NCBI GenBank assembly: GCA_017532155.1 | Contig: JAFXJP010000045.1 | Coordinates: 1 to 40,329, forward strand | Direction of reading: 5' to 3' | Source: Clostridia bacterium | Lineage (GTDB): Bacteria; Bacillota; Clostridia; Christensenellales; Aristaeellaceae | DNA: 40,329 nucleotides | Shown: one piece after another, positions 5,307 to 35,345 of the stretch | Numbering within the stretch: the stretch's first letter is position 1 | How the letters are laid out: the number at the start of each line of letters is the position of its first letter | The notes under the pieces: model-generated | What the model saw: the letters and a program-made list of their open reading frames with translations, nothing else | Database searches by the model: none | Told to the model about the DNA's origin: nothing | Position numbers and translations under genes: made by a program

Positions 5307-5561
5307 ATGTCTGAAGATCGTGGCGAAAGAAAGCAGCGTCCGCGTGGCCGCAAGCCGCGCCGCAAGGTCTGCGATTTCTGCGTAAATAAGGTCGCTTATA
5401 TCGACTACAAGGACGTGAACCGTCTGCGCCGTTACATCAACGAGCGCGGCAAGATCATGCCCCGCCGTATGACTGGCACCTGTGCCAAGCATCAGCGTCA
5501 GCTGTCTGAGGCCATCAAGCGCGCCCGTGCCATCGCGCTGCTGCCCTACACTGTCGATTAA
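5307..5561 (+). CDS. rpsR: 30S ribosomal protein S18
   Basis: An 84-residue S18. A basic N-terminal extension ([12 protein letters not shown]) precedes the canonical core: [38 protein letters not shown] and the Arg/Ala helix to the end. The C-x-x-C pair CDFC plus CAKH suggests a zinc-binding (C+) form. AGGAGG precedes the start. It is last in the operon, followed within 30 bases by a strong terminator. Confidence 0.97.
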
Positions 5562-5586
5562 TGCGATAAGCATACATCACTCACAT

Positions 5587-13046: not shown

Positions 13047-13376
13047 GGCGGGCGCTCCTTGTATAGTTAATCGAGTTTTGAGAAGGACAACGCCAGCTGC
13101 GGCTGGCTACACATCATCCGGCGCACGATGCTCGCCGCCTTCCTCTTGAGGGGAAGCTGTCACGGCTTGCTGTGACTGTTGAAGTGTAGTCGCCGCAGCG
13201 GCGTTATCTGGATCTTGTTTGTCCGCGTGGGACGGCTGGTGCCAACACACAACGTGATCGGCATAGGCTCCGGGCACTGCCCGGTGACAGCGGCGTTATC
13301 TGGATCTTGTTTGTCCACGTGGGACGGCTGGTGCCAACACACAACATGATCGGCACAGGCTCCGGGCACTGCCCGG
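13047..13376. other. Repeat-filled gap between binding protein and permease genes
   Basis: No gene is supported. The gap holds a short copy of the TIR element (13106-13190) and two tandem 92-base repeats (13196-13379). It separates genes that are usually nearly adjacent, so the elements were probably inserted into the operon. Confidence 0.7.
13106..13190 (+). repeat. Short degenerate copy of the GCTACACCTCAT-type inverted-end element
   Basis: It begins GCTACACATCATCCGG and ends GAAGTGTAG, with the diagnostic TTGAGGGGAAGCTGTC core inside. It resembles the longer copies at 21152 and 34916 but lacks their first CTTCCCCTCAAGGGGAAG arm. The flanking hairpin GCCAGC-TGC-GGCTGGC matches the one beside the 35-kb copy. 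Confidence 0.75.
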
Positions 13377-13379
13377 TTA
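13196..13379. repeat. Two tandem 92-base direct repeats
   Basis: Copy 1 spans 13196-13287 and copy 2 13288-13379, with four differences (for example CCGCGTGG/CCACGTGG and AACGTGAT/AACATGAT). Each ends in the palindrome CCGGGCACTGCCCGG. Copy 2 ends exactly at the stop codon of the binding-protein gene, so that stop is part of the repeat. Confidence 0.9.
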
Positions 13380-14371: not shown

Positions 14372-14437
14372 GATTGGATGATTGTATGCTTATCGCATTA
14401 ATCGAAGAAGATTTGTGGTAACAATAAAAAAGCATGC

Positions 14438-15377: not shown

Positions 15378-16124
15378 TTAGAAATTGACGACCTTGGAGA
15401 AGTCCTCGGCCTTCAGGGACGCGCCGCCGATCAGGCCGCCGTCGATTTCGGGCTGCGCCATCAGGCCGGAAGCGTTCTTGGGATTCATGCTGCCGCCGTA
15501 CTGGATGCGGACCTTATCGGCCACGCGCTTGCCGTACTTGCGGGCGATGGCGGCGCGGATCACGCCGATGGTCTCGTTGGCCTGCTCATCGGTAGCGGTC
15601 AGGCCCGTGCCGATGGCCCAAACGGGCTCGTAGGCGATAACGACCTTCTTCACTTCGTCAGCGGTCATGCCGTTGAGGGCGGTGAGGGTCTGGTACTCCA
15701 TCAGGCTGTTGGTGTAGCCGCCTTCGCGCTGCTCCTTGCGCTCGCCCACGCAGATGATGGGGGTGATGCCATTGCGGATGGCAGCCAGGGAGCGGAGGTT
15801 GACGGTTTCGTCGGTTTCGCCAAAGTACTGGCGGCGCTCGCTGTGGCCAATGATGGCGTAATCAACGCCGCAGGCCTTGAGCATATCGGCGGAGAGCTCG
15901 CCCGTGTAGGCGCCACTTTCCTTCCAATGCATGTTCTGCACGCCGATCTTGATCTTGCTGCCGCGGGCAGCCTGCTTGGCAGCATGCACCAGCAGCGCGG
16001 GCACGCACAGAACGACGGTGCACTTGGCTTCCTTCACCAGGGGCTTGAGGGCCTGGATCATTTCGGTGGCTTCGGCGGGGGTCTTATTCATTTTCCAGTT
16101 GCCGGCGATAATGGGAGTACGCAT
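15378..16124 (-). CDS. tpiA: Triosephosphate isomerase
   Basis: A full-length 248-residue TIM. Catalytic residues are present: Lys11 in AGNWKMN, His94 in IIGHSERR and Glu166 in AYEPVWAIGTG (flexible loop 6). The phosphate-binding YGGSMNPKNA and GGLIGGASL motifs follow. It interconverts dihydroxyacetone phosphate and glyceraldehyde 3-phosphate in the cytoplasm. AAAGGAGA precedes the start. It is downstream of pgk on the same strand but separated by a 221-base gap filled by a structured repeat element (16165-16336), which may uncouple the two genes. Confidence 0.98.
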   Translation of the reverse strand: MRTPIIAGNWKMNKTPAEATEMIQALKPLVKEAKCTVVLCVPALLVHAAKQAARGSKIKIGVQNMHWKESGAYTGELSADMLKACGVDYAIIGHSERRQYFGETDETVNLRSLAAIRNGITPIICVGERKEQREGGYTNSLMEYQTLTALNGMTADEVKKVVIAYEPVWAIGTGLTATDEQANETIGVIRAAIARKYGKRVADKVRIQYGGSMNPKNASGLMAQPEIDGGLIGGASLKAEDFSKVVNF

Positions 16125-16164: not shown

Positions 16165-16336
16165 GCGGGATGCATCGAAGGGCGCAGCGCCTTCGATTGA
16201 AACCCGCAGCGGCGGCATGTACGCCGCGAGGAGCAGCTGAAAGCTGCTTCCTATATCATTTTCTGGCCGTGCAGCGCAGCTGCACAAGAAAATGATGCAC
16301 CCCATAGGGAGACGGATTTATTCCGTCTCCCTATGG
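16165..16336 (-). repeat. Multi-hairpin 3' element, copy A (after pgk)
   Basis: Read on the minus strand from 16336: a 15-bp hairpin (GGGAGACGGA / TCCGTCTCCC), then GCATCATTTTC, a GTGCAGC-TGC-GCTGCAC hairpin closed by GAAAATGAT, a conserved AGCAGCT-TTC-AGCTGCT hairpin, and a terminal ATCGAAGG-CGCTGCGC-CCTTCGAT hairpin. Copy B follows pgi at 25886-26045. About 95 central bases are close to 87% identical by eye, and differing stem bases stay paired. Confidence 0.8.
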
Positions 16337-16345
16337 ATACTTTTA

Positions 16346-17644
16346 TTACTTGTCGTTCAGCGCAGCAACGCCGGGCAGGGTCTTGCCTTCGAGGAACTCG
16401 AGGGAAGCGCCGCCGCCGGTGGAGATGTGGTCGATCTTGTCAGCGTAGCCCAGCTGGGTCACAGCCGCAGCGCTGTCGCCGCCGCCCACGATGGTGATGG
16501 CGTCGCTGTCAGCCAGAGCCTGCGCCACGGCGATGGTGCCCTTGGCGAAGTTGGCAAACTCGAACACGCCCATGGGGCCGTTCCAAACAACGGTCTTGGC
16601 GTTCTTCACGGTCTCGGCGAAGAGCTCCTGGGTCTTGGGGCCGATGTCCAAGCCTTCCCAGCCCTCGGGAATGCAGCCGGCTTCGACAACCTGGGTGTTG
16701 GCGTCGTTGGAGAAATCGTCAGCGCAAACGGTGTCGATGGGCAGCAGGAACTTCACGCCCTTATCGGCAGCCTTCGCCATGATTTCCTTGGCCAGGTCGA
16801 TCTTGTCTTCTTCCAGCAGGCTGTTGCCGACATTGCCGCCCATGGCCTTGGAGAAGGTGTAGGCCATGCCGCCGCCGATGATCAGCGCGTCAACCTTGTC
16901 AATCAGGTTGGTGATAACGCCGATCTTGGAAGAAACCTTGGCGCCGCCCAGAACGGCGACGAAGGGACGAGCGGGATTCTCCAGCGCGCCGCCCATGAAC
17001 TTCAGTTCCTTTTCAATCAGGAAACCGGAGACGGCGGGCAGATAATCGGCAACGCCGGCAGTGGAGGCATGCGCACGGTGCGCGGTGCCGAAAGCGTCGT
17101 TCACGTACAGCTCGGCATAGGAAGCCAGGGCCTTGGCGAACTCGGGATCATTCTTTTCTTCTTCCTGATGGAAGCGCAGGTTTTCAAGCACCATGACCTG
17201 GCCGGGCTTGAGAGCGGCGGCCTTCGCCTTGGCGTCCTCGCCGATAACGTCCTTGGCCATGATCACTTCCTGGCCGAGCAGCTCAGACAGGCGGGCGGCA
17301 ACGGGAGCCAGAGACAGCTTCTTGACGTCCTTCTTGGCCTTTTCGAGGGCGGCGGCGGTGGCAGCTTCCTGCTCTTCGGCGGGCAGGGCTTCGATCTTGG
17401 CCTTTTCCTTCTTGTTCAGCTTCAGCTTCTCATTGAAAACATTGTGGGGCTTGCCCATATGGGAGCACAGGATGACAGCCGCGCCTTCGTCCACCAGATA
17501 CTTGATGGTGGGCAGCGCGCCGAGGATGCGGTTTTCGTCGGTGATCTTGGTGCCGGTTTCCTTGTCCATGGGAACGTTGAAGTCCACGCGCACGAGGACT
17601 TTCTTACCCTTGACGTTTACGTCTTTGATGGTCTGCTTGCTCAT
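16346..17644 (-). CDS. pgk: Phosphoglycerate kinase
   Basis: A 432-residue PGK. The N-domain has [11 protein letters not shown] (17-27), LCSHMGKP (59-66) and LENLRFH; the C-domain has [21 protein letters not shown] and the nucleotide-binding GGGDSAAAV, then [13 protein letters not shown]. It makes ATP and 3-phosphoglycerate from 1,3-bisphosphoglycerate. It is about 35 residues longer than the usual ~395 because of a Lys/Glu/Ala-rich insertion at residues ~68-107, directly after SHMGKP. AAGGAG precedes the start and a promoter lies at 17727-17755. No gap gene is adjacent. The stop codon is followed by the structured element 16165-16336. Confidence 0.98.
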
Positions 17645-20840: not shown

Positions 20841-21151
20841 TTAATCCCTCCTTTTAGAAAAAATGCCATGGGAATTTGCAGCCGATTTGTGCTGCAGAAA
20901 GATGTGGAGCGATTACGGAGAGTTTCTTCGCCGGAGAGCTGCTGTGGGGCGCGCGCTTTCGGCGAAGCAGGATAAAGCACTGAATTCTCTCCCGATGAAA
21001 ATAATAGCATCTTGAACAAAATAAAGTCCAGCATCTTTTGTTAAAAACTTAGCAACCAACGGTTGCATTTCTGTATTTTCAATGTATTTTCACCGGGCAG
21101 TGCCCATCTCCCGTGCCTGCAAACACACAAAAATAACGCCGCCTGCGGGCG
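20841..21151. other. Leader and spacer upstream of the membrane-bound XRE gene
   Basis: No gene is supported. The minus-strand leader contains an eight-base inverted repeat, CTTCGCCG...CGGCGAAG (20930-20970 region), and a likely promoter at 21001. Beyond 21060 there is only spacer with a CCGGGCAGTGCCC fragment that recalls the end of the 92-base repeats at 13196. Confidence 0.4.
21001..21030 (-). promoter_or_regulatory. Possible promoter of the membrane-bound XRE gene
   Basis: Minus strand: TGGACT (21025-21030), 18-base spacer, TATTAT (21001-21006). It would give a leader of about 150 bases. Confidence 0.38.
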
Positions 21152-21280
21152 GCTACACCTCATCCGAGGCGCTTCGCACCCCACCTTCCCCTCAAGGGGA
21201 AGGCTTTATTATTGCCGACTATCCAAAAGGCTTCCCCTTGAGGGGAAGCTGTCGCCAAAAGGCGACTGATGAGGTGTAGC
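21152..21280 (+). repeat. Inverted-end element (MITE/REP-like), full copy 1
   Basis: A 129-base element with 12-base perfect terminal inverted repeats GCTACACCTCAT / ATGAGGTGTAGC. Inside are two facing copies of CTTCCCCT-CAAGGGGAAG and a GTCGCC..AAAGGCGAC hairpin. It has no open frame. The flanking hairpin is GCCGCC-TGC-GGGCGGC. Confidence 0.85.
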
Positions 21281-21295
21281 GCTCTGCAGAGCGCG

Positions 21296-21420
21296 TTTCC
21301 TTTCCCGTCACGCTGCGCGTGATCGCATCGGCGAAGCGGATAGAAAAAGACCCCGGCAGCGAGGGAAAAGCTTGCTTTTCCATTCGATGACCGGAGTCTT
21401 TTTCGTATAGCCTGCCGAAA
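21296..21420 (-). repeat. Hairpin-chain terminator element, copy T1 (after the PAP2 gene)
   Basis: Minus strand from 21420: CGGCAGGCTATACGAAAAAG, a long terminator-like hairpin (21344-21403; apical GGAAAAGC-AA-GCTTTTCC, ending in a T-run), a CCGC-TTC-GCCG hairpin and a TCACGC-GCA-GCGTGA hairpin. It then runs into the inverted-end element at 21280. It starts about 37 bases after the PAP2 stop codon and probably ends that operon's transcript. Confidence 0.75.
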
Positions 21421-21456
21421 CAACCCAACCCAAAGATCGGTTTTCGAAGGAGGCTT

Positions 21457-24542: not shown

Positions 24543-25880
24543 ATGGCAATGACACTTAAAATGACCGGCGTGAAGGGCTTTGTGGAACAGCGCGAACTGG
24601 ATAACATGAACTCCCTCATGCATTGTGTAAATGAACAGCTGCTGGCGCATACCGGCGCGGGCAATGATTTCCTGGGCTGGATCGATCTGCCCGTCAACTA
24701 CGACAAGGACGAGTTCGCCCGCATCCAGAAGGCCGCCAAGAAGATTCAGTCCGACAGCGACGTGCTGGTCGTCATCGGCATCGGCGGCAGCTACCTGGGT
24801 GCGCGCGCTGCCATCGAATTCTGCAAGGGCCAGATGTACAACGCCGTGCGCGAAGAGGGCATCCCCGAGGTGTACTTCGCCGGCAACAACATCTCCTCTT
24901 CCTACCTGAATGATATCATCAAGATCATCGGCGACCGTGATTTCTCGGTCAACATCATCTCCAAGTCCGGCACCACCACCGAGCCCGCCATCGCCTTCCG
25001 CGTGTTCAAGAAGATGCTGGAAGAAAAGTACGGCAAGGAAGGCGCCAAGGGCCGCATCTACGCCACCACCGATAAGGCGCGCGGCGCGCTGAAGGCGCTT
25101 GCCACCGCCGAGGGCTATGAGACCTTCGTGGTTCCGGACGACGTGGGCGGCCGCTTCTCGGTGCTTACGGCTGTGGGCCTGCTGCCCATTGCTGCTGCCG
25201 GCGTGAACATCGAAGAAATGATGAAGGGCGCGCAGGACAGCCGCGAAGCTTGCACCGCGGGCGACGTCAACACCAACCCCGCCATGCAGTACGCGGCGCT
25301 TCGCAACATCCTCTACCGCAAGGGCAAGGTGACCGAAATTCTGGTCAACTACGAGCCCGCGCTGATGATGATGGGCGAATGGTTCAAGCAGCTGTACGCC
25401 GAAAGCGAAGGCAAGGATCTCAAGGGCATTTTCCCCACCGCCGCCAACTTCTCCACCGACCTGCACTCCATCGGTCAGTTCATCCAGGACGGCACCCGCA
25501 ATCTGTTTGAGACGGTGCTGTGGGTGAACACCCCCGTCAGCGAAGCGTACCTCGAAGCTGCGGAAGAGGACATCGACGGCCTCAATTACCTGGCCGGCAA
25601 GAGCGTGCAGTTTGTGAACTCCAAGGCCTATCAGGGCACGCTGATGGCGCACATGGACGGCGGCACGCCCAACATCATCGTGGAAATCGACAAGGCCGAC
25701 GCCTATCACTTTGGTTATCTGGCCTACTTCTTTGAAAAGGCCTGCGGCCTCAGTGGCTATCTGCTGGGCGTCAATCCCTTCGATCAGCCCGGCGTTGAAG
25801 CCTACAAGAAGAATATGTTTGCATTGCTTGGCAAGCCCGGCTTTGAAGATCGCAAAGCGGAACTCGAAAAGCGCCTGTAA
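24543..25880 (+). CDS. pgi: Glucose-6-phosphate isomerase
   Basis: A 445-residue PGI, the usual length for Firmicutes. Two SIS domains are recognisable: [15 protein letters not shown] (~residues 78-92) and [14 protein letters not shown] (~140-153). The active-site segment [21 protein letters not shown] and the C-terminal [17 protein letters not shown] with its catalytic Lys follow. It interconverts glucose 6-phosphate and fructose 6-phosphate. The start at 24543 has a GGTGAT site nine bases ahead. It has its own promoter, and a strong hairpin plus structured element copy B follow. Confidence 0.97.
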
Positions 25881-25885
25881 GGCGC

Positions 25886-26045
25886 TCAAAAGGGAACGGA
25901 TGAATCCGTTCCCTTTTGAATTGCATCATTTTCCTGTGCGGCTACGCCGCACGGCCGGAAAATGATAGAGGAAGCAGCTTTCAGCTGCTCCTCGCACCGC
26001 ACATGTCGCTGCTGCGGATGAGAAAAGAGGACGCTGCGCTCCTCT
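25886..26045 (+). repeat. Multi-hairpin 3' element, copy B (after pgi)
   Basis: It begins five bases after the pgi stop codon. A 15-bp terminator-like hairpin TCAAAAGGGAACGGA / TCCGTTCCCTTTTGA (25886-25919) is followed by GCATCATTTTCC, a GTGCGGC-TAC-GCCGCAC hairpin closed by GGAAAATGAT, the conserved AGCAGCT-TTC-AGCTGCT hairpin, and AAAGAGGA-CGCTGCGC-TCCTCTTT. It has the same order and spacing as copy A after pgk, with compensated stem changes. The rest of the gap to 26128 holds only the next promoter. Confidence 0.8.
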
Positions 26046-26128: not shown

Positions 26129-26728
26129 ATGAAACGACTGTTACTGACCGCCCTTTCCTGTCTAATCATATTCACCCTGCTTGGCTGCTCGGCGAAAAAG
26201 GCCTCCGCGCTTGAAATGTACATAGAGCCTGCGCAGCTGAGCAAGGAAGAGCAAGCCATCGTCAATCTGCTGGATGCCAGCCGCGCACGCATTTTTGATC
26301 TCAAGCTGACCGACGAATTAAAGAGCGCGCACATCAAGGTGTACCGCCTGGAAGACGGCGCCTGGGTTCCCGCCTCAGGCGGCGGCTCCATGAGAATCGA
26401 AGGGAAAAAGAGCCGTCTGGCGCTGGATTTTGACGTGCTGGCTGACGATCTGTACGTCGCCCTGCAGGGAACGGAAAGCAGCGCCGTCAAGCGCATTGCG
26501 CCGGAGAAGATGGACAGGGGCAAAATGAGCGTCACCACCACCTCGCTTGCCAACCGCATAGAAATGCAGTATGAGCAGGAAGTCCCGTTGATCGTGCAGA
26601 TTATCAGCGAGAAAGACGTAATCATGAGCTACGGCCCGGAGATTTTTTCCGATCCCGCCCGCCTTCAGCAATACGGCTACGAATATGTGTACGCCGTCAC
26701 GGTGATGTTCAGCAAAAATCCGCTGTAA
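26129..26728 (+). CDS. Lipoprotein of unknown function
   Basis: A 199-residue protein with a lipoprotein signal peptide: MKRLLLTALSCLIIFTLLGC, where LLGC is the lipobox and Cys20 would be lipidated. No family was recognised in the mature domain. It looks mixed alpha/beta, with strands such as AHIKVYRLEDGAWVPASGGG and LALDFDVLADDLYVALQG and the end YEYVYAVTVMFSK. The start at 26129 has an AGGAGG site. It is a monocistronic unit with its own promoter and terminator, anchored outside the cytoplasmic membrane. Confidence 0.75.
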   Translation: MKRLLLTALSCLIIFTLLGCSAKKASALEMYIEPAQLSKEEQAIVNLLDASRARIFDLKLTDELKSAHIKVYRLEDGAWVPASGGGSMRIEGKKSRLALDFDVLADDLYVALQGTESSAVKRIAPEKMDRGKMSVTTTSLANRIEMQYEQEVPLIVQIISEKDVIMSYGPEIFSDPARLQQYGYEYVYAVTVMFSKNPL

Positions 26729-28860: not shown

Positions 28861-29165
28861 TCGCGCTGCCCGCAGGCGGCGTTACCCCATCCCGCGCCGC
28901 AGCGCGAAACCCGCTCGTTTTTCCCGCAGAAAAAACGGCGTCAGCCAAACGCACGCCGCACCACAGCGGCAGTCCGCGGAGCACAGCTCCGCGAGCGCGC
29001 AAAGCGCGCAGAAAAAGGGGCTTGGAAGCGTGGGGAAAGCTTGCTTTCCCAAACGATTCCAAACCCCTTTTTCATACAGACTGCCGCGGCAAAGGATCCA
29101 CCCAAGCCCCGGCACAAACGCAGGTTCTTTGGTACTTTCTTGACGCAAGAAAGTACCGTCCTCCC
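28861..29165 (-). repeat. Hairpin-chain terminator element, copy T3 (after uxaC)
   Basis: The 345-base gap 28827-29171 holds no gene. On the minus strand after the uxaC stop: GGTACTTTCTTG-CGT-CAAGAAAGTACC hairpin, CGGCAGTCTGTATGAAAAAG, long terminator hairpin (29011-29073; apical GGGAAAGC-AA-GCTTTCCC), GCGCGC-TTT-GCGCGC, GCGGAGC-TGT-GCTCCGC, a linker with GTGCGTTTGGCTGACGCC, and CGTTTTTTC-TGC-GGGAAAAACG. It matches copy T4 at 35050-35345 along its whole length. Confidence 0.75.
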
Positions 29166-29171
29166 CCGTCC

Positions 29172-30566
29172 TTACAGCCCGAAATACCGCTTGGTATTGT
29201 AATACGAAATGTTCTCCACAATCTCGCCCAGCGTCTTCATATCGGCAGGATACATGCCCTCTTCCACCCACTGGCCGATGATGCGGCAGAGAATCCGGCG
29301 GAAGTACTCGTGGCGCGTGTAGGAGAGGAAGGAGCGGCTGTCGGTGAGCATGCCGATGAAATTGCCCAGCAGGCCCACTTCGGCAAGTGTCTTAATCTGA
29401 TTGGTCATGCCCTCCATGGTGTCGTTGAGCCACCAGGCAGAGCCGTGCTGGATCTTGCCCAGGCACTCGGGGCCCTGGAAGGACTGCGCGATGGACACCA
29501 GCATGGCGTTGTCGCCGGAGTTCAGGGAATAGAGGATGGTCTTGGGCAGTTCGCCGGTCTTTTCGAAGCTGTCCAGGAAGCGCGTGATATCAAAAGGATT
29601 GCCCGTCGCGCCCATGCAGTCGTAGCCCGTATCGGGGCCCAGCTGCTCAAAACGGCGGGTGTTGCTGTTGCGCACAGCGCCGTAATGCATCTGCATGGCC
29701 CAGCCGCGGCGCGCGTACTCGCGGCCGAGGAACTGCATCATGTAGAACTGATAGGCAGCCACTTCGCCGTTCGTCAGCTTTTCGCCGTTCATGCCCTTGT
29801 CGAAGATGGCCTTGATGTCAACGCCGTCAAGATCGGCATAGGGAATGGTGTCAATGCCGTGGTCGCTGGCGCAGCAGCCCATCTCGTCAAAGTAATCCAT
29901 GCGCTTTTTCAGCGCCTTCTTCACGCAGTTGGGGCAGTGGATTTCGATCTCCGCCACTTCGCCCAGCTTTTTGATATACTCCGCAAAGCCCGCCTTGTGG
30001 ATGTTGAGCGCCTTGTCGGGACGCCAGGCAGGGATCACGCGGGTCTTGAAGGAGGTATCGGCGGCAATCGCCTTGTGCGCGGCAAGGTCGTCAATGGGAT
30101 CATCGGTGGTGGCGATGCACTCAACGTTCGCCATTTCGATCATCTTGCGAACGGTGAGGGTCTTGAGTTTTTCGTTGCACAGATCCCACACTTCCTGGGC
30201 GGTTTCGCCGTTCAGGATGCCCTCATAGCCGAAGAAGCGCTTGAGCTCCAGGTGCGTCCAGTGATACATGGGATTGCCAATCGCCTTGGGCAGCATTTCG
30301 GCAAACTGCTGGAAGCGCTCGCGGTCGGAGGCCGGGCCAGTAACAAGCTTTTCGTCCACGCCGTTACTGCGGATCAGGCGCCACTTGTAGTGATCGCCGC
30401 CCAGCCACAGCTGGGTGATATTGTCATACTGCCTGTCATCGGCAATTTCCTGGGGGGAAATGTGGCAGTGGTAGTCAATGATGGGCATTTTTTCGGCGTG
30501 CTCATGATAAAGCACCTTTGCCGTTTCAGTATTGAGAAGGAAATCCTTCGTCATGAATTCCTGCAT
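29172..30566 (-). CDS. uxaC: Glucuronate/galacturonate isomerase (uronate isomerase)
   Basis: A 464-residue UxaC of the amidohydrolase-like fold. The metal motif IIDYHCHISPQEI lies near residue 30; other landmarks are HWTHLELKRFFGYEG, WRPDKALNI, RGWAMQMHYGAVRN, DTGYDCMG and the C-terminal GMLTDSRSFLSYTRHEYFRRILC. It isomerises D-galacturonate to D-tagaturonate (and glucuronate to fructuronate), the first step of pectin monomer catabolism. The ATG at 30566 is chosen because the AAAGGAAG site overlaps the alternative ATG at 30572. It is divergent from uxaB, the next enzyme of the pathway, with facing promoters in a 138-base gap. Confidence 0.96.
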   Translation of the reverse strand: MQEFMTKDFLLNTETAKVLYHEHAEKMPIIDYHCHISPQEIADDRQYDNITQLWLGGDHYKWRLIRSNGVDEKLVTGPASDRERFQQFAEMLPKAIGNPMYHWTHLELKRFFGYEGILNGETAQEVWDLCNEKLKTLTVRKMIEMANVECIATTDDPIDDLAAHKAIAADTSFKTRVIPAWRPDKALNIHKAGFAEYIKKLGEVAEIEIHCPNCVKKALKKRMDYFDEMGCCASDHGIDTIPYADLDGVDIKAIFDKGMNGEKLTNGEVAAYQFYMMQFLGREYARRGWAMQMHYGAVRNSNTRRFEQLGPDTGYDCMGATGNPFDITRFLDSFEKTGELPKTILYSLNSGDNAMLVSIAQSFQGPECLGKIQHGSAWWLNDTMEGMTNQIKTLAEVGLLGNFIGMLTDSRSFLSYTRHEYFRRILCRIIGQWVEEGMYPADMKTLGEIVENISYYNTKRYFGL

Positions 30567-30606
30567 GGTCATCTTCCTTTCGTTATATCCGGATGTCTCT
30601 TATTTT

Positions 30607-30634
30607 ATTATAGCGAGGATTTTCAATTTTGCAA
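30607..30634 (-). promoter_or_regulatory. uxaC promoter
   Basis: Minus strand: TTGCAA (30629-30634), 16-base spacer, perfect TATAAT (30607-30612). Confidence 0.62.
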
Positions 30635-30640
30635 GTCCTA

Positions 30641-30669
30641 TTGACATTCAGGCCAATTGTGATTAAAGT
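30641..30669 (+). promoter_or_regulatory. uxaB-uxaA operon promoter
   Basis: Perfect TTGACA (30641-30646), 17-base spacer, TAAAGT (30664-30669). It lies back to back with the uxaC promoter, only six bases between the -35 boxes, so one regulator could control both. Confidence 0.58.
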
Positions 30670-30704
30670 AAATAAAAAAGCGACTGAAAAAGCGAGGTAT
30701 GCGT

Positions 30705-32192
30705 ATGGAACGGCTGAACTATACCACCCTGAAAAATAACGGATATACCGGCTATGTGCTGGAAAATGCCCCCGAAAAAGTGCTGCAGTTCGGCGAAGGC
30801 GGCTTTTTGCGCGCGTTTGTCGATTATTTCTTTGATCTGAGCAACGAGCGTCACGGCTTTAACGGCAAGGTGGTGCTCGTGCAGCCCATCGCCCAGGGCC
30901 TGACGGAAATGGTAAACGATCAGCAGGGCCTGTATACCCTGTACCTGCGCGGCTTCCAGGATGGAAAGACCGTCAATGACAAGCGCGTGATCTCCTGCGT
31001 CAGCCGCTGCATCAATCCCTACCAGGATCATGCAGCCTTCCTGCAGTGCGCGCATAACCCCGATTTGCGCTATATTGTATCTAACACCACCGAGGCGGGC
31101 ATTGCCTATGATCCTGCCTGCGGGTTTGACGATGCGCCGCAGTCCTCCTTCCCGGGCAAGCTCACGCGCTTCCTCTATGAGCGCTACCTGGCCTTTGGCA
31201 AGGAGCACGGCCGCGGCATGGTGATCCTCTCCTGCGAGCTGATTGACAACAACGGCAAAGAGCTCAAAAAATGCGTGGACAAATACGTGGAGCAGTGGAA
31301 TCTGCCCGAGGATTTCCGCACATGGCTCGACAGCGAAAACCTCTTCTGCTCCTCGCTCGTTGACCGCATCGTAACGGGCTATCCGCGAAATGAGGCCGAC
31401 AGGCTGAACGCAGAAAACGGCTACATCGATACGCTGATCGATACCGGCGAAGTCTTCGGCGCGTGGGTCATCGAAGGCCCCGAATGGCTTAAAAAAGAGC
31501 TGCCCTTCTGTGACGGCGAGCTTCCCGTCATCGTCACCCCCGATCACAAGCCCTACAAGCAGCGCAAGGTCCGCATCCTCAACGGCGCGCATACCACCAT
31601 GGTGCTGGGCGCGTACCTCAGCGGCCAGGATATCGTGCGCGACTGCATGCAGGATGAAGTGATCTCCTCCTACATGGACAAGGCGCTCTACGATGAAATC
31701 ATCCCCACGCTGACGCTGCCCAAGGACGAGCTCACCGCCTTTGCCGCCTCCGTGCGCGAAAGATTTGCCAATCCCTTCATCGACCATCTGCTGCTGAGCA
31801 TTTCTCTGAACTCCACCAGCAAGTGGCGCGCGCGCTGCATGCCGAGTCTGAAGGCATACATGGAAAAATTCCAGGCTGTTCCCGCCTGCCTGTCGCTGGG
31901 CCTGGCCTCGCTCCTTGCCTTCTATCACGGCGAGCGCATGGAGGGCACGGCGCTTGTAGGCCGCCGCGCCAAGGGCAACGAATACGAAATCCACGATGAC
32001 GAAAGCGCGCTGCGCTTCTTCCTCAGCCACAAGGACGACGCGCCGGCAGCTTATGTGCATGCGGCGCTCACAAATACCGATTTCTGGGGCGAGGATCTAA
32101 CGCTTCTGCCCGGTCTTGAAAGCGCTGTGCTCGCGCACTACGAATTGATCCTGCGCGAGGGTGCCTACGCCGCCATGAAAAACGTGCTGTAA
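30705..32192 (+). CDS. uxaB: Tagaturonate reductase (altronate oxidoreductase)
   Basis: A 495-residue member of the mannitol dehydrogenase family. The N-terminal Rossmann region has LQFGEGGFLRAFVDYFFD and VVLVQPIAQG; the conserved catalytic segment is KVRILNGAHTTMVLGAYLSG (K-x3-L-N-x2-H). It reduces D-tagaturonate to D-altronate with NADH. The ATG at 30705 is preferred because GAGG lies seven bases ahead and the ATG at 30699 touches it. It is first of uxaB-uxaA-isomerase, with uxaA starting 10 bases after its stop. Confidence 0.95.
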   Translation: MERLNYTTLKNNGYTGYVLENAPEKVLQFGEGGFLRAFVDYFFDLSNERHGFNGKVVLVQPIAQGLTEMVNDQQGLYTLYLRGFQDGKTVNDKRVISCVSRCINPYQDHAAFLQCAHNPDLRYIVSNTTEAGIAYDPACGFDDAPQSSFPGKLTRFLYERYLAFGKEHGRGMVILSCELIDNNGKELKKCVDKYVEQWNLPEDFRTWLDSENLFCSSLVDRIVTGYPRNEADRLNAENGYIDTLIDTGEVFGAWVIEGPEWLKKELPFCDGELPVIVTPDHKPYKQRKVRILNGAHTTMVLGAYLSGQDIVRDCMQDEVISSYMDKALYDEIIPTLTLPKDELTAFAASVRERFANPFIDHLLLSISLNSTSKWRARCMPSLKAYMEKFQAVPACLSLGLASLLAFYHGERMEGTALVGRRAKGNEYEIHDDESALRFFLSHKDDAPAAYVHAALTNTDFWGEDLTLLPGLESAVLAHYELILREGAYAAMKNVL

Positions 32193-32202
32193 GAGGTAAT
32201 TT

Positions 32203-33672
32203 ATGAAAAGCATTCAGATTCACCCGCAGGACAATGTGCTGGTAGCGCTCTCTCCCCTCGAAAAGGGCGAAACGCTGCAGGGCGTGACGGCGCTTGAAAA
32301 CGTGCCGCAGGGCCACAAAATGGCGCTGCGCGACATCCGCGCGGGCGAAAACGTGATCAAATACGGCTTCCCGATCGGCCACGCGCTGCAGGATATCCCC
32401 GCCGGCAGCTGGGTGCACACGCATAACGTAAAGACCAACCTGGCGGGCGAGATGGATTACACCTACCAGCCGGCGGATGCGCCCCTGCTGACAGCTGGAG
32501 AAAAGCGCACCTTCCGGGGCTTTATGCGTCCTGACGGCCGCGCCGCCATCCGCAACGAAATCTGGATCATCCCCACCGTCGGCTGCGTGAATTCCGTGGC
32601 CGAAAAGCTGGTGCGCGACAATCAGCACCTCGTTTCGGGCAGTGTGGAAGGCCTTTACACCTTCACCCATCCCTACGGCTGCAGCCAGATGGGCGAGGAT
32701 CACGAGAATACCCGCAAGCTCCTCGCCGCGCTGTGCCGCCATCCCAATGCCGGCGGCGTGCTGGTGCTGTCCCTCGGCTGCGAAAATCTGACGCTTGCGC
32801 AATTCCAATCTGAGCTTGGCCAGTGGGATGATAACCGCGTCAAATTCCTCGTCTGCCAGGACGTGGAGGACGAATACGAAGAGGGCGCGAAGCTGCTGAA
32901 AGAATTGGCGGAATACGCCGGGCAGTTTACGCGCGAGGAAATCCCCGCCGGCAAGCTCGTCATCGGCATGAAGTGCGGCGGCTCGGACGGCCTCTCCGGC
33001 GTCACCGCCAACCCCACCGTCGGCGCGTTCAGCGATCTGATGATCGCGCAGGGCGGCACGACCATTCTGACCGAAGTGCCCGAGATGTTCGGCGCGGAAA
33101 CGCTGCTCATGAACCGCTGCGAAAACAAGCAGATTTTTGACAAAACCGTTGATATGATCAACGATTTCAAGCAATATTTCATCAGCCACAATCAGGTGGT
33201 GTACGAAAATCCCTCGCCCGGCAACAAAGCCGGCGGCATCACGACGCTGGAGGACAAATCCCTTGGCTGCGTGCAAAAGGGCGGCAGCGCAAAGGTGGTG
33301 GACGTGATCGGCTATGCTGAACAGGTGACGGTGCCGGGGCTCAATCTCCTCACGGGGCCCGGCAACGATCTGGTCAGCGCCACGGCGCTCACGGCAGCCG
33401 GCGCGCACCTGATTCTCTTTACCACCGGCCGCGGAACGCCCTTTGGCGCGCCCGCGCCCACGGTGAAAATCGCCACCAACAACCGCCTTTTCAATCATAA
33501 AAAGGGCTGGATTGACTTTAACGCCGGCCCCATCGCCGAGGGCGAGAGCATTCCCGCGGCAGGCCAGCGCCTGTTTGACGCGGTCATCGAATACGCTTCC
33601 GGCAAACAGACCCAGAGCGAGATGACCGGCTGCCGCTCCATCGCCATTTTCAAGGGCGGCGTGACGCTGTAA
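32203..33672 (+). CDS. uxaA: Altronate dehydratase
   Basis: A 489-residue full-length UxaA. The N-terminal SAF-like domain (to about residue 85) ends with the HTHNVKTNL region. The C-terminal catalytic domain includes GFMRPDGRAAIRNEIWIIPTVGCVN, HPYGCSQMGEDHENTRK, VLSLGCENL, MKCGGSDGLSGVTANP and FTTGRGTPFGAPAPTVKIATN. Cysteines in these blocks fit the iron-dependent site. It dehydrates D-altronate to 2-keto-3-deoxygluconate. kdgK and kdgA are not in the window. An AGAGG site precedes the start. Confidence 0.96.
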   Translation: MKSIQIHPQDNVLVALSPLEKGETLQGVTALENVPQGHKMALRDIRAGENVIKYGFPIGHALQDIPAGSWVHTHNVKTNLAGEMDYTYQPADAPLLTAGEKRTFRGFMRPDGRAAIRNEIWIIPTVGCVNSVAEKLVRDNQHLVSGSVEGLYTFTHPYGCSQMGEDHENTRKLLAALCRHPNAGGVLVLSLGCENLTLAQFQSELGQWDDNRVKFLVCQDVEDEYEEGAKLLKELAEYAGQFTREEIPAGKLVIGMKCGGSDGLSGVTANPTVGAFSDLMIAQGGTTILTEVPEMFGAETLLMNRCENKQIFDKTVDMINDFKQYFISHNQVVYENPSPGNKAGGITTLEDKSLGCVQKGGSAKVVDVIGYAEQVTVPGLNLLTGPGNDLVSATALTAAGAHLILFTTGRGTPFGAPAPTVKIATNNRLFNHKKGWIDFNAGPIAEGESIPAAGQRLFDAVIEYASGKQTQSEMTGCRSIAIFKGGVTL

Positions 33673-33683
33673 AAGGAGGCATT

Positions 33684-34541
33684 ATGCTGCAAATCGGCAT
33701 TCGTCTGCACGATGTGAACACCGCCTGCGCGCCCGAAATGCAGACCCTTGAATCGCGCGCAAAGACCGCCCGCGAGGAGGGCTTTTGCTGCGTGCATCTG
33801 GCGCCGCAAAAGGTGATGAAGGGCGTCGCCTTTGAAGAAAAGGCTTTCACCGAGGGCCTGGGGCATTATTTCCACCGCGTTTTCGGCAAAAATGATCTGG
33901 ATATCGCCGTGCTCGGCTGCTATATGAACCTTGCCACGCCCGATCCTGCGCAGCTGCGCACCTTCCAGGGCCGCTACTATGGCTCCATCCGCACCGCCGC
34001 GCGCTGCAACTGCGGCATGGTGGGCACCGAAACCGGCGCGCCCAACCGCGAGTACAAGCCCGACCGCATGACGCGCTCGGACGAGGCGCTGGATACCTTC
34101 ATCCGCAACCTCGCGCCCGTGGTGGAATGCGCCGAAAATTACGGCGTGACGCTCGCTATCGAGCCCGTGCTCAAGCACATTGTATACAACGCCGACCGCG
34201 CGCTGCAGGTGATCCGCAGTATCGGCAGCCGCAATCTGCGCATCATTTTCGATCCCGTCAATCTGCTGGGCAGCGAAAATGTCGATCGCCGCGATGACGT
34301 CATCCGCGACGCCATGGACAAGCTGTGCGATCACATCGCGATGGTGCATTTAAAGGATTTCGTGCGCGGCGAGAATGACCTTATCAGCGTGGCTGCCGGC
34401 GAGGGCGAGATGGATTACCGCGAAATCCTCCGCTTCCTCAAGGCGAACAAGCCCTGCATTCAGGCGACGCTGGAGAACACCGTGAACGAGAATGCGGTAA
34501 GGTCGCGGATGCTGATTGAGAGGATTTACGAGGAAGTGTAA
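33684..34541 (+). CDS. Sugar phosphate isomerase/epimerase family TIM-barrel protein in the uxa operon
   Basis: A 285-residue xylose-isomerase-like TIM barrel. Visible motifs: the start LQIGIRLHD, LAIEPVLKHIVYN (metal Glu), IIFDPVNLLG (Asp), IAMVHLKDFVRGEND (His, Asp) and IQATLENTVNE (second Glu). It follows uxaA by 11 bases with an AAGGAGG site, so it is part of the galacturonate operon. A role in converting another uronate or a side product into the pathway is plausible, but the substrate cannot be read from the sequence. It is not closely alike to the pair at 2230-4017. Confidence 0.82.
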   Translation: MLQIGIRLHDVNTACAPEMQTLESRAKTAREEGFCCVHLAPQKVMKGVAFEEKAFTEGLGHYFHRVFGKNDLDIAVLGCYMNLATPDPAQLRTFQGRYYGSIRTAARCNCGMVGTETGAPNREYKPDRMTRSDEALDTFIRNLAPVVECAENYGVTLAIEPVLKHIVYNADRALQVIRSIGSRNLRIIFDPVNLLGSENVDRRDDVIRDAMDKLCDHIAMVHLKDFVRGENDLISVAAGEGEMDYREILRFLKANKPCIQATLENTVNENAVRSRMLIERIYEEV

Positions 34542-34730
34542 GGAACGATAGGGAGGCAGCTTTGGAGCCCAAAAGCCAGTCCACAATTCGGCATTGTCGT
34601 AAAGTGAACGAGAGTTCACTTTACTCTGTGCCTCATTGGAACTTCATCCGCCTTTATCTGCCAAAGGGCAGCGGCGGATTCCGTTCCCCTAAAACCCTCC
34701 CGAAAGGCAGTTTTATTGCCGTAAATGTTG
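34542..34730 (+). other. Spacer after the uxa operon with two hairpins
   Basis: No gene. AAAGTGAAC-GAGA-GTTCACTTT (34601-34622) and TCCGCC...GGCGGA (34648-34680) are stem-loops without clear T-runs. They precede the terminator-like element T2. Confidence 0.5.
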
Positions 34731-34915
34731 CGGCAGGCTATACGAAAAAAGACTGAATCCGAATGTACGAGCAAGCTCGTCCCTCGGCTTCAGTCCTTTT
34801 TTCTATCCGCTTCGCGGATGCGATTGCTGCGCAATCGGCCTGCTGCATAAATCGCCCGCGGGGGAACGCCGTTTCGCTTCGGCGAAACGAGCGGAAGAAA
34901 CGCGCGTTGCGACGC
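34731..34915 (+). repeat. Hairpin-chain terminator element, copy T2 (after the uxa operon)
   Basis: Plus strand: CGGCAGGCTATACGAAAAAA, long terminator hairpin 34745-34802 (GACTGAA-TCCGA / TCGG-CTTCAGTC, apical ACGAGC-AA-GCTCGT, T-run), ATCCGC-TTC-GCGGAT, GCGATTGC-TGC-GCAATCG, and a shortened copy of the CGCCGTTT..AAACGAGCGG hairpin. It then joins the inverted-end element at 34916 through GCGCGT-TGC-GACGCGC. Confidence 0.75.
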
Positions 34916-35049
34916 GCTACACCTCATCCGTCACGGCTATGCCGTGACACCTTCCCCTCAAGGGGAAGGCTCTCGCTTGGTTGCAATCCACCAAAAGGCT
35001 TCCCCTTGAGGGGAAGCTGTCGCCTGAAAGGCGACTGATGAGGTGTAGC
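34916..35049 (+). repeat. Inverted-end element (MITE/REP-like), full copy 2
   Basis: A 134-base element with the same 12-base ends GCTACACCTCAT / ATGAGGTGTAGC and the same two CTTCCCCT / AGGGGAAG arms as the copy at 21152. The left variable hairpin here is GTCACGGC-TAT-GCCGTGAC. It lies exactly between hairpin-chain copies T2 (plus) and T4 (minus). Confidence 0.85.
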
Positions 35050-35345
35050 CAGCCGCAGCTGGCGTTATTTCCTGCGCCGCAGCGCGAAACCCGCTCGTTT
35101 TTGCCGCAGCAAAAACGGCGCCAGCCAAACGCACCCCGTACCAAAGCGGCAGTCCGCGGAGCTGTGCTCCGCGGGTTTGCGAAGCAAACTGAAAAAGGGC
35201 TTGGAAGCCGAGCGCGAGCTTGCTCGCAGATCGGATTCCAAACCCTTTTTCATAAAACTGCCGCGCCAATAACGCAGCCAGCAAACATAAACGACTGGTT
35301 TCTTTGTTACTTTCTTTGACGCAAAGAAAGTAACGTTCCCCTTCC
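35050..35345 (-). repeat. Hairpin-chain terminator element, copy T4 (after the pectinesterase gene)
   Basis: Minus strand after the pectinesterase stop: GTTACTTTCTTTG-CGT-CAAAGAAAGTAAC hairpin, GGCAGTTTTATGAAAAAG, long terminator hairpin 35191-35251 (AGGG-TTGGAA..., apical GCGAGC-AA-GCTCGC, T-run), GTTTGC-TTC-GCAAAC, GCGGAGC-ACA-GCTCCGC, the GTGCGTTTGGCTGGCGCC linker and CGTTTTTGC-TGC-GGCAAAAACG. It is collinear with copy T3. Confidence 0.75.

What the first reader, a model, noticed from the sequence alone, without database searches (positions are those of the whole stretch)
28861..35345. Family of hairpin-chain elements at operon 3' ends with compensatory stem changes
Four copies (T1 21296-21420 minus, T2 34731-34915 plus, T3 28861-29165 minus, T4 35050-35345 minus) share one order: CGGCAG.CT.TA.GAAAAA, a long terminator-like hairpin, then several small hairpins. 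Apical stems differ yet pair (GGAAAAGC/GCTTTTCC, ACGAGC/GCTCGT, GGGAAAGC/GCTTTCCC, GCGAGC/GCTCGC), all around AGC-AA-GCT. The next hairpin reads ATCCGC-TTC-GCGGAT, GCGCGC-TTT-GCGCGC or GTTTGC-TTC-GCAAAC. All copies are in sense orientation just after a gene: PAP2, uxa operon, uxaC, pectinesterase. Conserved loops with covarying stems point to selection on RNA structure, or to a mobile terminator family not covered by known REP types as far as I can tell.
Basis: partly seen in the sequence, partly recalled or inferred. Interest (0 to 1): 0.78.

Follow-up and report, generated by a model that had tools for sequence, protein, structure and literature searches.

The report
Paired cloverleaf repeats between bacterial genes
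A bacterium that looks like a relative of gut Clostridia carries about a hundred copies of a non-coding DNA element that folds into a four-armed cloverleaf and mostly sits, in facing pairs, where two genes run towards each other; the fold stays the same while its letters change, which marks a structured repeat family whose job at gene ends can now be tested.

Summary
T2, T3 and T4 are complete ~120-nt cloverleafs (closing stem P1; long A/T-tract arm P2; arms P3, P4); T1 is decayed. About 105 copies lie in this 2.0-Mb MAG. Copies occur in 7 of 11 genomes of the genus (own included) and in a second genus. The fold is kept while helix letters change: across 7 genomes 31 of 34 pairs changed on both sides and 97.6% of cells pair. 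No Rfam family matches at gathering score.

Two types, A and B, face each other in 38 of 41 pairs. Copies start about 88 nt after a stop codon, mostly between convergent genes, where 'always sense' is automatic. Between two species 16 of 18 testable sites are shared, yet the cores there are less alike (70%) than each is to its best match in its own genome (91-96%): concerted evolution. RAYT-type transposase is absent in 6 of 7 bearer genomes of the genus.

Best reading: a two-headed structured repeat of the MITE/BIME/BOX kind, homogenised within genomes and used as a bidirectional 3'-end terminator or insulator. Terminator action, mobility, and RNA versus DNA remain inferred.

The parts
28967..29086 (-). 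T3 core, type B cloverleaf: P1 29079-29086/28967-28974, P2 29011-29073, P3 28995-29009, P4 28975-28993
   Evidence: CM hit 120.5 bits with R1, 107.1 with R2; RNA MFE -80.2, z -11.5
29131..29157 (-). T3 H0 hairpin (GGTACTTTC..GAAAGTACC) between the uxaC stop and the cloverleaf; the usual 5' module of type B
   Evidence: sequence; the same module before most B copies
34731..34845 (+). T2 core, type A cloverleaf: P1 34731-34738/34838-34845, P2 34744-34803, P3 34804-34820, P4 34821-34837
   Evidence: CM hits 105.3 bits (R1) and 89.9 (R2); RNA MFE -56.7, z -7.9
34542..34730 (+). T2 5' part: purine tract, remnant of an H0 hairpin and the longer alternative hairpin module (..CATCCGCC..GGCGGATT..)
   Evidence: 190 nt from stop to core; the same module in several other copies
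35147..35263 (-). T4 core, type B cloverleaf, facing T2: P1 35257-35263/35147-35153, P2 35190-35252, P3 35175-35189, P4 35154-35174
   Evidence: CM hits 100.3 bits (R1) and 96.1 (R2); RNA MFE -74.1, z -9.7
35306..35334 (-). T4 H0 hairpin (GTTACTTTCTTTGCGTCAAAGAAAGTAAC) after the pectinesterase stop
   Evidence: sequence
34846..35146 (.). Interior of the T2-T4 unit, including another repeat family (CACCTCATC..ATGAGGTG, about 34917-35046)
21306..21417 (-). T1 core: decayed type A copy (P2 intact, P3 mispaired, P1 3' strand not found), with a truncated H0 just upstream (21418-21456)
   Evidence: 63.4 bits with R1, 52.7 with R2; minimum-energy fold not the cloverleaf; no P1 3' strand

Best explanation
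This is a family of non-coding intergenic repeats whose core is a ~120-nt cloverleaf (four-way junction). The usual unit is two-headed: a type A and a type B cloverleaf face each other between two genes, each preceded by a ~88-nt 5' part (purine tract, H0 hairpin, linker) that begins about at a stop codon. Shown: the fold, the covariation, the A-B pairing, the fixed stop distance, the bias to convergent gaps, and conserved position with replaced sequence between two species (concerted evolution). Inferred: the copies form a repeat population of the MITE/BIME kind that is homogenised within each genome by recombination or copying, and is kept at gene 3' ends because it ends transcription from both sides. 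In that model P2, with an A tract before and a T tract after it and about 100 nt past the stop, acts as an intrinsic terminator for each gene, and the whole unit insulates the two convergent genes. Not explained by this: why P1, P3 and P4, which lie partly downstream of the T tract, are also kept.
For: Copies and spread. Covariation: A2 (57 own copies, MAFFT) 96.5% paired, 21 of 34 pairs with double-sided change, 328 such cells vs 100.5 in shuffles; A4 (53 copies, 7 genomes, aligned to the model) 97.6%, 31 of 34, 475 vs 123.9, slid controls at most 47.2% paired. A-B in 38 of 41 facing pairs, A-A 1, one end untyped 2, B-B 0; 38 of 39 typed, p 1.5e-10. Stop to core 75-105 nt in 65 of 86 sense copies. 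Held gaps with an element: 34 convergent, 17 tandem, 2 divergent; without: 7, 78, 17; Fisher p 4e-14. Concerted evolution in 16 of 16 orthologous copies. Terminator role: T run of 4 or more near the P2 3' base in 101 of 104 own copies; uxaC homologs of three relatives have no model match nearby and, by eye, an ordinary hairpin plus T run after the stop; a terminator works poorly within a few bp of a gene and better further away (PMC4824070, start of abstract in the listing).
Against: Only 11 of 23 copies of the second genus have a T run of 4 or more, and in G006 the base of P2 reads TTGTT, the counted run lying inside the stem, so a T tract at the base is not invariant. P3, P4 and the P1 3' strand lie beyond the T tract. 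Five own copies sit beyond what looks by eye like an ordinary terminator, where they could not be needed for termination. The simple terminator scan did not list the P2 arms of T2, T3 or T4 (its rule allows no bulges). In 100 kb of control stretches, which I chose for having few copies, 0 of 15 convergent gaps held a full element by the hit list (gaps), so not every convergent gap has one. The gap statistics come from segments chosen round copies. No clean empty site was found, so insertion itself is not shown. No expression data.
Confidence: 0.5

Rival explanations
1. DNA-level element: the cloverleaf matters, or merely persists, as folded DNA (cruciform or single-stranded hairpins). Perfect arms are kept by template switching or hairpin resolution and by gene conversion, not by selection on RNA. 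It may be selfish.
For: Concerted evolution at fixed positions. Triloops occur with their reverse complements on the same arms: 16 of 75 distinct loops vs 5.4 expected, p 0.0025. In the own genome P3 and P4 show no excess of G-U over A-C (3 vs 10 by distinct arm pairs). Both strands of T2 and T3 fold as the same cloverleaf as DNA. Template switching can create and maintain hairpins (PMC8794818, abstract and outline seen).
Against: G-U exceeds A-C overall (70:27 own, 34:18 relatives by distinct arm pairs), and in relatives P3 and P4 give 7 G-U to 4 A-C. P1 arms lie ~100 nt apart with three hairpins between, an unlikely template-switch target. A fixed stop distance and 3' location are not predicted by pure DNA maintenance. 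The loop test is a single test with a simple null on related copies.
Confidence: 0.25
2. Structured RNA in mRNA 3' UTRs: the cloverleaf is transcribed whole and protects or processes the mRNA 3' end (RNase III- or RNase P-like recognition).
For: Covariation covers the whole cloverleaf, beyond the T tract. Location ~88 nt after stop codons. G-U over A-C excess, mainly in P1 and P2.
Against: Orientation to genes is not clearly constrained in tandem gaps (17 sense to 11 antisense own; 2 to 7 second genus). P3 and P4 of the own genome lack the wobble bias. P2 carries a T tract before P3 and P4 in 101 of 104 own copies.
Confidence: 0.17
3. REP/REPIN-type family moved by a RAYT (Y1 transposase).
For: Palindromic, multicopy, at 3' ends and between convergent genes like REPs (recalled; PMC1525189 and PMC8049555 seen only in the listing).
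Against: PF01797 absent in 6 of 7 bearer genomes of the genus, present in 1 (G008), and present in 9 of the 29 other genomes searched. The assemblies are incomplete, and the bearers of the second genus were not searched for it.
Confidence: 0.04
4. Ordinary independent terminators that look alike by chance.
For: P2 is terminator-like.
Against: 19-nt start motif 74 vs 3 in the reversed control; CM hits down to E 3e-27; same cloverleaf in several species.
Confidence: 0.01

Closest known systems
BOX elements of Streptococcus pneumoniae (with RUP and SPRITE)
   Same: Modular, highly folded intergenic repeats, over-represented between convergent genes; SPRITE resembles a Rho-independent terminator (PMC3049150, passages seen).
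   Different: BOX is built of boxA, boxB and boxC modules; here the core is a closed four-way junction in two facing types with a fixed distance to the stop codon, and the sequence differs by species while the fold is kept. No sequence relation was tested.
REP / BIME / REPIN with RAYT
   Same: Palindromes at gene 3' ends, multicopy (recalled).
   Different: ~120-nt cloverleaf instead of a ~20-40 nt hairpin (recalled); RAYT-type transposase absent in 6 of 7 bearers of the genus.
Terminators made of DNA uptake sequences (Neisseria, Haemophilus; genera recalled)
   Same: A repeated sequence embedded in terminator hairpins (PMC1852404, listing only; cited in a passage of PMC2267715).
   Different: No one word is shared between species here; P1 and P2 letters change almost completely.
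MITEs
   Same: Non-coding, multicopy, base-paired, with paired ends.
   Different: No target-site duplication, empty site or source transposon was shown; core GC mostly 50-66% in the own genome rather than AT-rich (AT-rich, TIR and TSD criteria as given in PMC3049150).

Membership tests
REP/RAYT | Y1 transposase (RAYT) in the genome | tested here: not met
   PF01797 absent in 6 of 7 bearer genomes of genus g1, present in G008; second genus not searched
REP/RAYT | short palindrome with GTAG/GGAG-type foot | not tested
   motif recalled; no systematic test made
MITE | terminal inverted repeats | tested here: inconclusive
   A and B ends are similar inverted cloverleafs with H0 hairpins, but they are two distinct types
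MITE | target-site duplication / empty site | tested here: inconclusive
   three tries gave no clean empty site: G007 flanking genes not found in the own genome, rearranged site, uxaC 3' ends without element
MITE | parental transposon with the same ends | not tested
   no search for a longer coding copy was made
Intrinsic (Rho-independent) terminator | hairpin followed by T tract | tested here: met
   own genome: P2 with T run of 4 or more in 101 of 104 copies; only 11 of 23 in genus g54, and base TTGTT in G006
Intrinsic (Rho-independent) terminator | RNA 3' ends at the T tract | not testable with these tools
   no expression data
Rfam family | match at gathering score | tested here: not met
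   0 matches in the window; in six loci 12 matches at E up to 1, all below the family's gathering score
BOX-type modular repeats | modules in variable combination | tested here: met
   P3 and P4 types reassort; H0 has alternative modules

The most novel reading that the evidence does not exclude
A two-headed mobile or gene-conversion element whose recognised form is a DNA four-way junction (a built-in Holliday-junction-like fold). Copies at fixed places are continually overwritten by other copies, arms are repaired by template switching with loop inversion, and rearrangement breakpoints fall between the two heads; the unit thereby serves as both a bidirectional terminator and a recombination joint between convergent genes.
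Probability: 0.2. Interest if true: 0.82.

Novelty: new variant of a known kind. Interest (0 to 1): 0.62.

Why it matters
A ~120-nt cloverleaf kept at about 100 places in one genome, with nearly every base pair replaced between species, is textbook covariation; yet the copies evolve in concert and show a loop-inversion signature. This makes a good natural test of whether covariation reports RNA selection or DNA-level palindrome repair. It could also be a ready-made set of bidirectional terminators or insulators, and it suggests that relatives of gut Clostridia carry structured repeats that Rfam-based annotation misses.

Tried and rejected
Rfam: nothing above gathering score. RAYT/Y1 transposase as driver: not consistent. 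Spread beyond the family: 80 named uxaC loci gave 0 hits with R1 at E up to 1; 291 genomes of the class gave own plus 7 genomes with weak hits of 27-40 bits; the two of these that I folded (L278, L279) do not show the full arrangement; judged chance. Matches in g4 (G151) are short (65-74 nt) and weak (28-43 bits) and were not examined. Viral contigs: 0 exact matches to one long pattern. Empty sites: G007 flanking genes not found in the own genome; site rearranged; no clean insertion boundary. G003: 7 of 42 called proteins matched own-genome segments; no shared site was established. Wobble test for RNA versus DNA: inconclusive. 'Sense orientation' as evidence for RNA: rejected because convergent gaps make it automatic. 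Two notebook entries are corrected here: 17 of 20 shared sites should read 16 of 18, and 108 places should read 107. No paper describing this family was seen in 7 full-text searches; subscription papers are mostly not held and no bioRxiv preprints.

Rows dropped: of 74 pattern matches, 68 were parsed by the tip motif; of the other six, four read as coding sequence and two are copies whose tip differs. A2 used 57 of these 68 (those with a found P1 3' strand at 112 nt or more). Of 120 R1 matches in the own genome I used the 107 with E below 1e-8; two of these (C22:31872, C58:13726) look doubtful. One search gave 104 matches from 58 sources; L209 and L211, holding the two doubtful hits, were left out. 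37 G007 copies were placed in context of 49 matches counted. Searches over many genomes score a capped number of candidates per genome (60, 24 or 12), so their counts are lower bounds. Gene calls come from my own codon-model script, not from an annotation; some of the 9 short stop distances are doubtful calls that run into H0. The stop codons printed are shifted by one base.
Full report
CHECK OF THE OBSERVATION. The four copies are present. Aligned, they share CGGCAG.CT.TA.GAAAAA (with a deletion in T4), a long hairpin with AGCAAGCT at the tip and small hairpins after it. The start motif occurs 3 times in the window (shuffle mean 0.33) and, with up to 2 mismatches, 74 times in the 2.02-Mb, 82.5%-complete genome the window belongs to, against 3 for the reversed pattern. 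In type A, P1 is CGGCAGGC/GCCTGCCG; in type B it is CGGCAGTC/GACTGCCG. T2, T3 and T4 fold this way with z-scores of -7.9, -11.5 and -9.7; T1 lacks the P1 3' strand and folds otherwise.

COPIES AND COVARIATION. A covariance model R1 from 57 own copies finds 107 places with E below 1e-8 in the own genome (one search lists 120 matches; most of the weaker ones are re-hits on the other strand). On the MAFFT alignment of the 57 copies 96.5% of cells pair (shuffled 81.8%), 21 of 34 pairs change on both sides, and 328 cells do so against 100.5 in shuffles; the number of further pair types did not exceed shuffles (42 vs 45.7). R1 also found the element in six further genomes of the same genus. There the helices are different sequences (for example P1 CTCCCGGGCA/TGCCCGGGAG, TCCCGGGCA/TGCCCGGGA, GTCTGGGG/CCCCAGAC) but the cloverleaf is the same; in one closer relative, G007, they are similar. 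On 53 copies from 7 genomes, 97.6% of cells pair (shuffled 69.8%; slid versions 36-47%), 31 of 34 pairs change on both sides, 475 cells against 123.9. That alignment was fitted to the model, so it leans towards it. The arm-swap test does not depend on it: own P2 arms have a median duplex energy of -34.5 against -18.6 kcal/mol for swapped arms (90 of 104 copies parsed; 48 of 90 beat all 40 random partners and 76 beat at least 38).

SPREAD. Four genus-1 genomes (G001, G005, G009, G010) have none with either model, and G008 has 56 matches with R2. In 291 genomes of the class only weak matches of 27-40 bits appear outside the own genome. The g54 and g10 copies that I folded have the same cloverleaf. 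So the family reaches at least two genera of one bacterial family but is patchy. The nearest named homologs of the window's uxaC (up to 75% identity) are MAGs labelled Clostridiales, Lachnospiraceae or Clostridia; none of the 80 loci has an R1 match.

ANATOMY AND POSITION. In the own genome 86 of 102 copies with a called 5' neighbour are sense to it and start a median of 88.5 nt after its stop; 65 of 86 lie at 75-105 nt, 9 nearer and 12 beyond 130. In G007 31 of 36 are sense, again mostly at 84-98 nt. Between stop and core lie a purine-rich tract (47% G and 33% A in the 15 nt counted, which begin with the last base of the stop), an H0 hairpin (mostly different for A and B, with exchanges) and a linker. 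The larger distances belong to a longer alternative module or to five copies that sit beyond what looks by eye like an ordinary terminator. With a G007 unit as query, DNA similarity to the own genome runs from about the stop codon to a little beyond the P1 3' strand, about 200-235 nt per half. Copies face each other in 41 pairs: 38 A-B, 1 A-A, 2 with one untyped end, 0 B-B (p 1.5e-10 for 38 of 39 typed). Of the gaps in the held segments, 34 convergent, 17 tandem and 2 divergent ones hold an element; 7, 78 and 17 do not (Fisher p 4e-14). These segments were chosen round copies. In the window 3 of 6 convergent gaps hold one. In 100 kb of control stretches, which I chose for few copies, none of 15 convergent gaps holds a full element by the hit list; 13 of the 15 are 172 nt or shorter, and one (C11:30599-30772) holds two H0 modules and linkers without cloverleafs.

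ORIENTATION. In tandem gaps of the own genome 17 copies are sense and 11 antisense, the single ones 6 of 6 sense (p 0.34 and 0.03). In g54, of 20 copies examined, 10 lie in convergent gaps, 2 are sense and 7 antisense in tandem gaps, and 1 lacks a 5' neighbour (p 0.18). Orientation therefore does not prove an RNA role.

CONCERTED EVOLUTION. Between the own genome and G007 (34 of 52 matched flanking proteins at 80-98% identity), 18 of the 31 sense G007 copies have an ortholog of their 5' gene in the held own-genome segments, and 16 of these 18 have an own-genome copy at the same place. The segments were chosen round copies, so sites without one are under-sampled. At these 16 sites the two cores are on average 70% identical, whereas the best match within the same genome is 96% (G007) or 91% (own); 16 of 16 sites show this, and 5 of 16 have switched between A and B. 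The gene on the far side of several units differs between the species, so rearrangement breakpoints lie between the two heads. P3 and P4 types reassort. Position is thus kept while sequence is overwritten by other copies. At greater distance, for uxaC, the one gene tested, it is not kept: homologs of G003, G004 and G006 (54-56% identity) have no R1 match within the ~1.5 kb held and carry, by eye, an ordinary hairpin plus T run instead.

RNA OR DNA. Counting distinct arm pairs, G-U exceeds A-C in the own genome (70:27) and in relatives (34:18), mainly in P1 and P2; P3 plus P4 give 3 G-U to 10 A-C in the own genome and 7 to 4 in relatives. This is inconclusive, since the alignments are model-fitted and copies are related. 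Among distinct triloops (the best 3-nt-loop hairpin in the last 45 nt of each copy, mostly P4 and some P3), 16 of 75 occur with their reverse complement on the same arms, against 5.4 in a simple null (p 0.0025); this is what loop inversion by template switching or hairpin resolution would leave. Template switching is reported to create and maintain hairpins (PMC8794818, abstract and outline seen). So the covariation is real but is not by itself proof of RNA selection.

MECHANISM. The best-supported working model is a two-headed repeat unit that ends transcription from both sides. P2 has a T run of 4 or more in 101 of 104 own copies and in 68 of 71 copies of the other genus-1 genomes by the same count, though in the four G006 copies that run lies inside the stem and the base reads TTGTT; in g54 it is 11 of 23. 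In uxaC it stands where relatives have a plain terminator. Its distance from the stop fits the finding that a terminator works poorly right behind a gene (PMC4824070, start of abstract seen in the listing). That P1, P3 and P4 are also kept, although they lie beyond the T tract, is not explained by termination; it points to a DNA role, to read-through RNA, or to copying of the unit as a whole.

NOVELTY. By kind it belongs with small interspersed folded repeats (BOX, RUP, SPRITE, BIME, MITE). PMC3049150 reports such repeats over-represented between convergent genes and a terminator-like one, SPRITE (passages). PMC8040213 lists 250 palindromic structured candidates in human microbiomes, 230 with predicted terminators; the four named in its text are mostly or wholly from Bacteroidetes (passages). 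The closed cloverleaf core, the A-B heterodimer, the fixed stop distance and the fold-kept, sequence-replaced evolution make it a new variant. Seven searches of the open library showed no paper on it.

Noticed in passing
window 13089-13166, 21131-21297, 34899-35072: A second repeat family (CTACACCTCATCCGTC..hairpins..CTTCCCCTCAAGGGGAAG..GATGAGGTGTAGC) lies inside or beside the cloverleaf units, in places as an inverted pair.
   Followed up: no
G000:C11:30599-30772 (in L325): Convergent gap with two type-B H0 modules and complementary linkers but no cloverleafs: looks like a deletion scar of a unit.
   Followed up: no
G000:C11:28159-28295 (in L325): Stand-alone terminator-like hairpin whose arms resemble by eye the P2 arm of the copy at C31:69292; P2 arms may be exchanged with ordinary terminators.
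   Followed up: no
window 5554-5576 and 14383-14405: Perfect 23-nt inverted repeat pair (TCGATTAATGCGATAAGCATACA) 8.8 kb apart.
   Followed up: no
window 13196-13379: Two tandem copies of a 92-nt sequence (96% alike).
   Followed up: no
window 16177-16321 and 25900-26044: 145-nt stretches, 80% reverse-complementary, in the gaps between called genes 15378-16124 and 16346-17644 (both minus) and between 24561-25880 and 26129-26728 (both plus): possibly duplicated operon gaps.
   Followed up: no
contig ends of G000 (e.g. C5, C9, C17, C28, C30, C53, C54, C62): Many copies lie within a few hundred bases of contig ends: the repeats probably break this assembly.
   Followed up: partly
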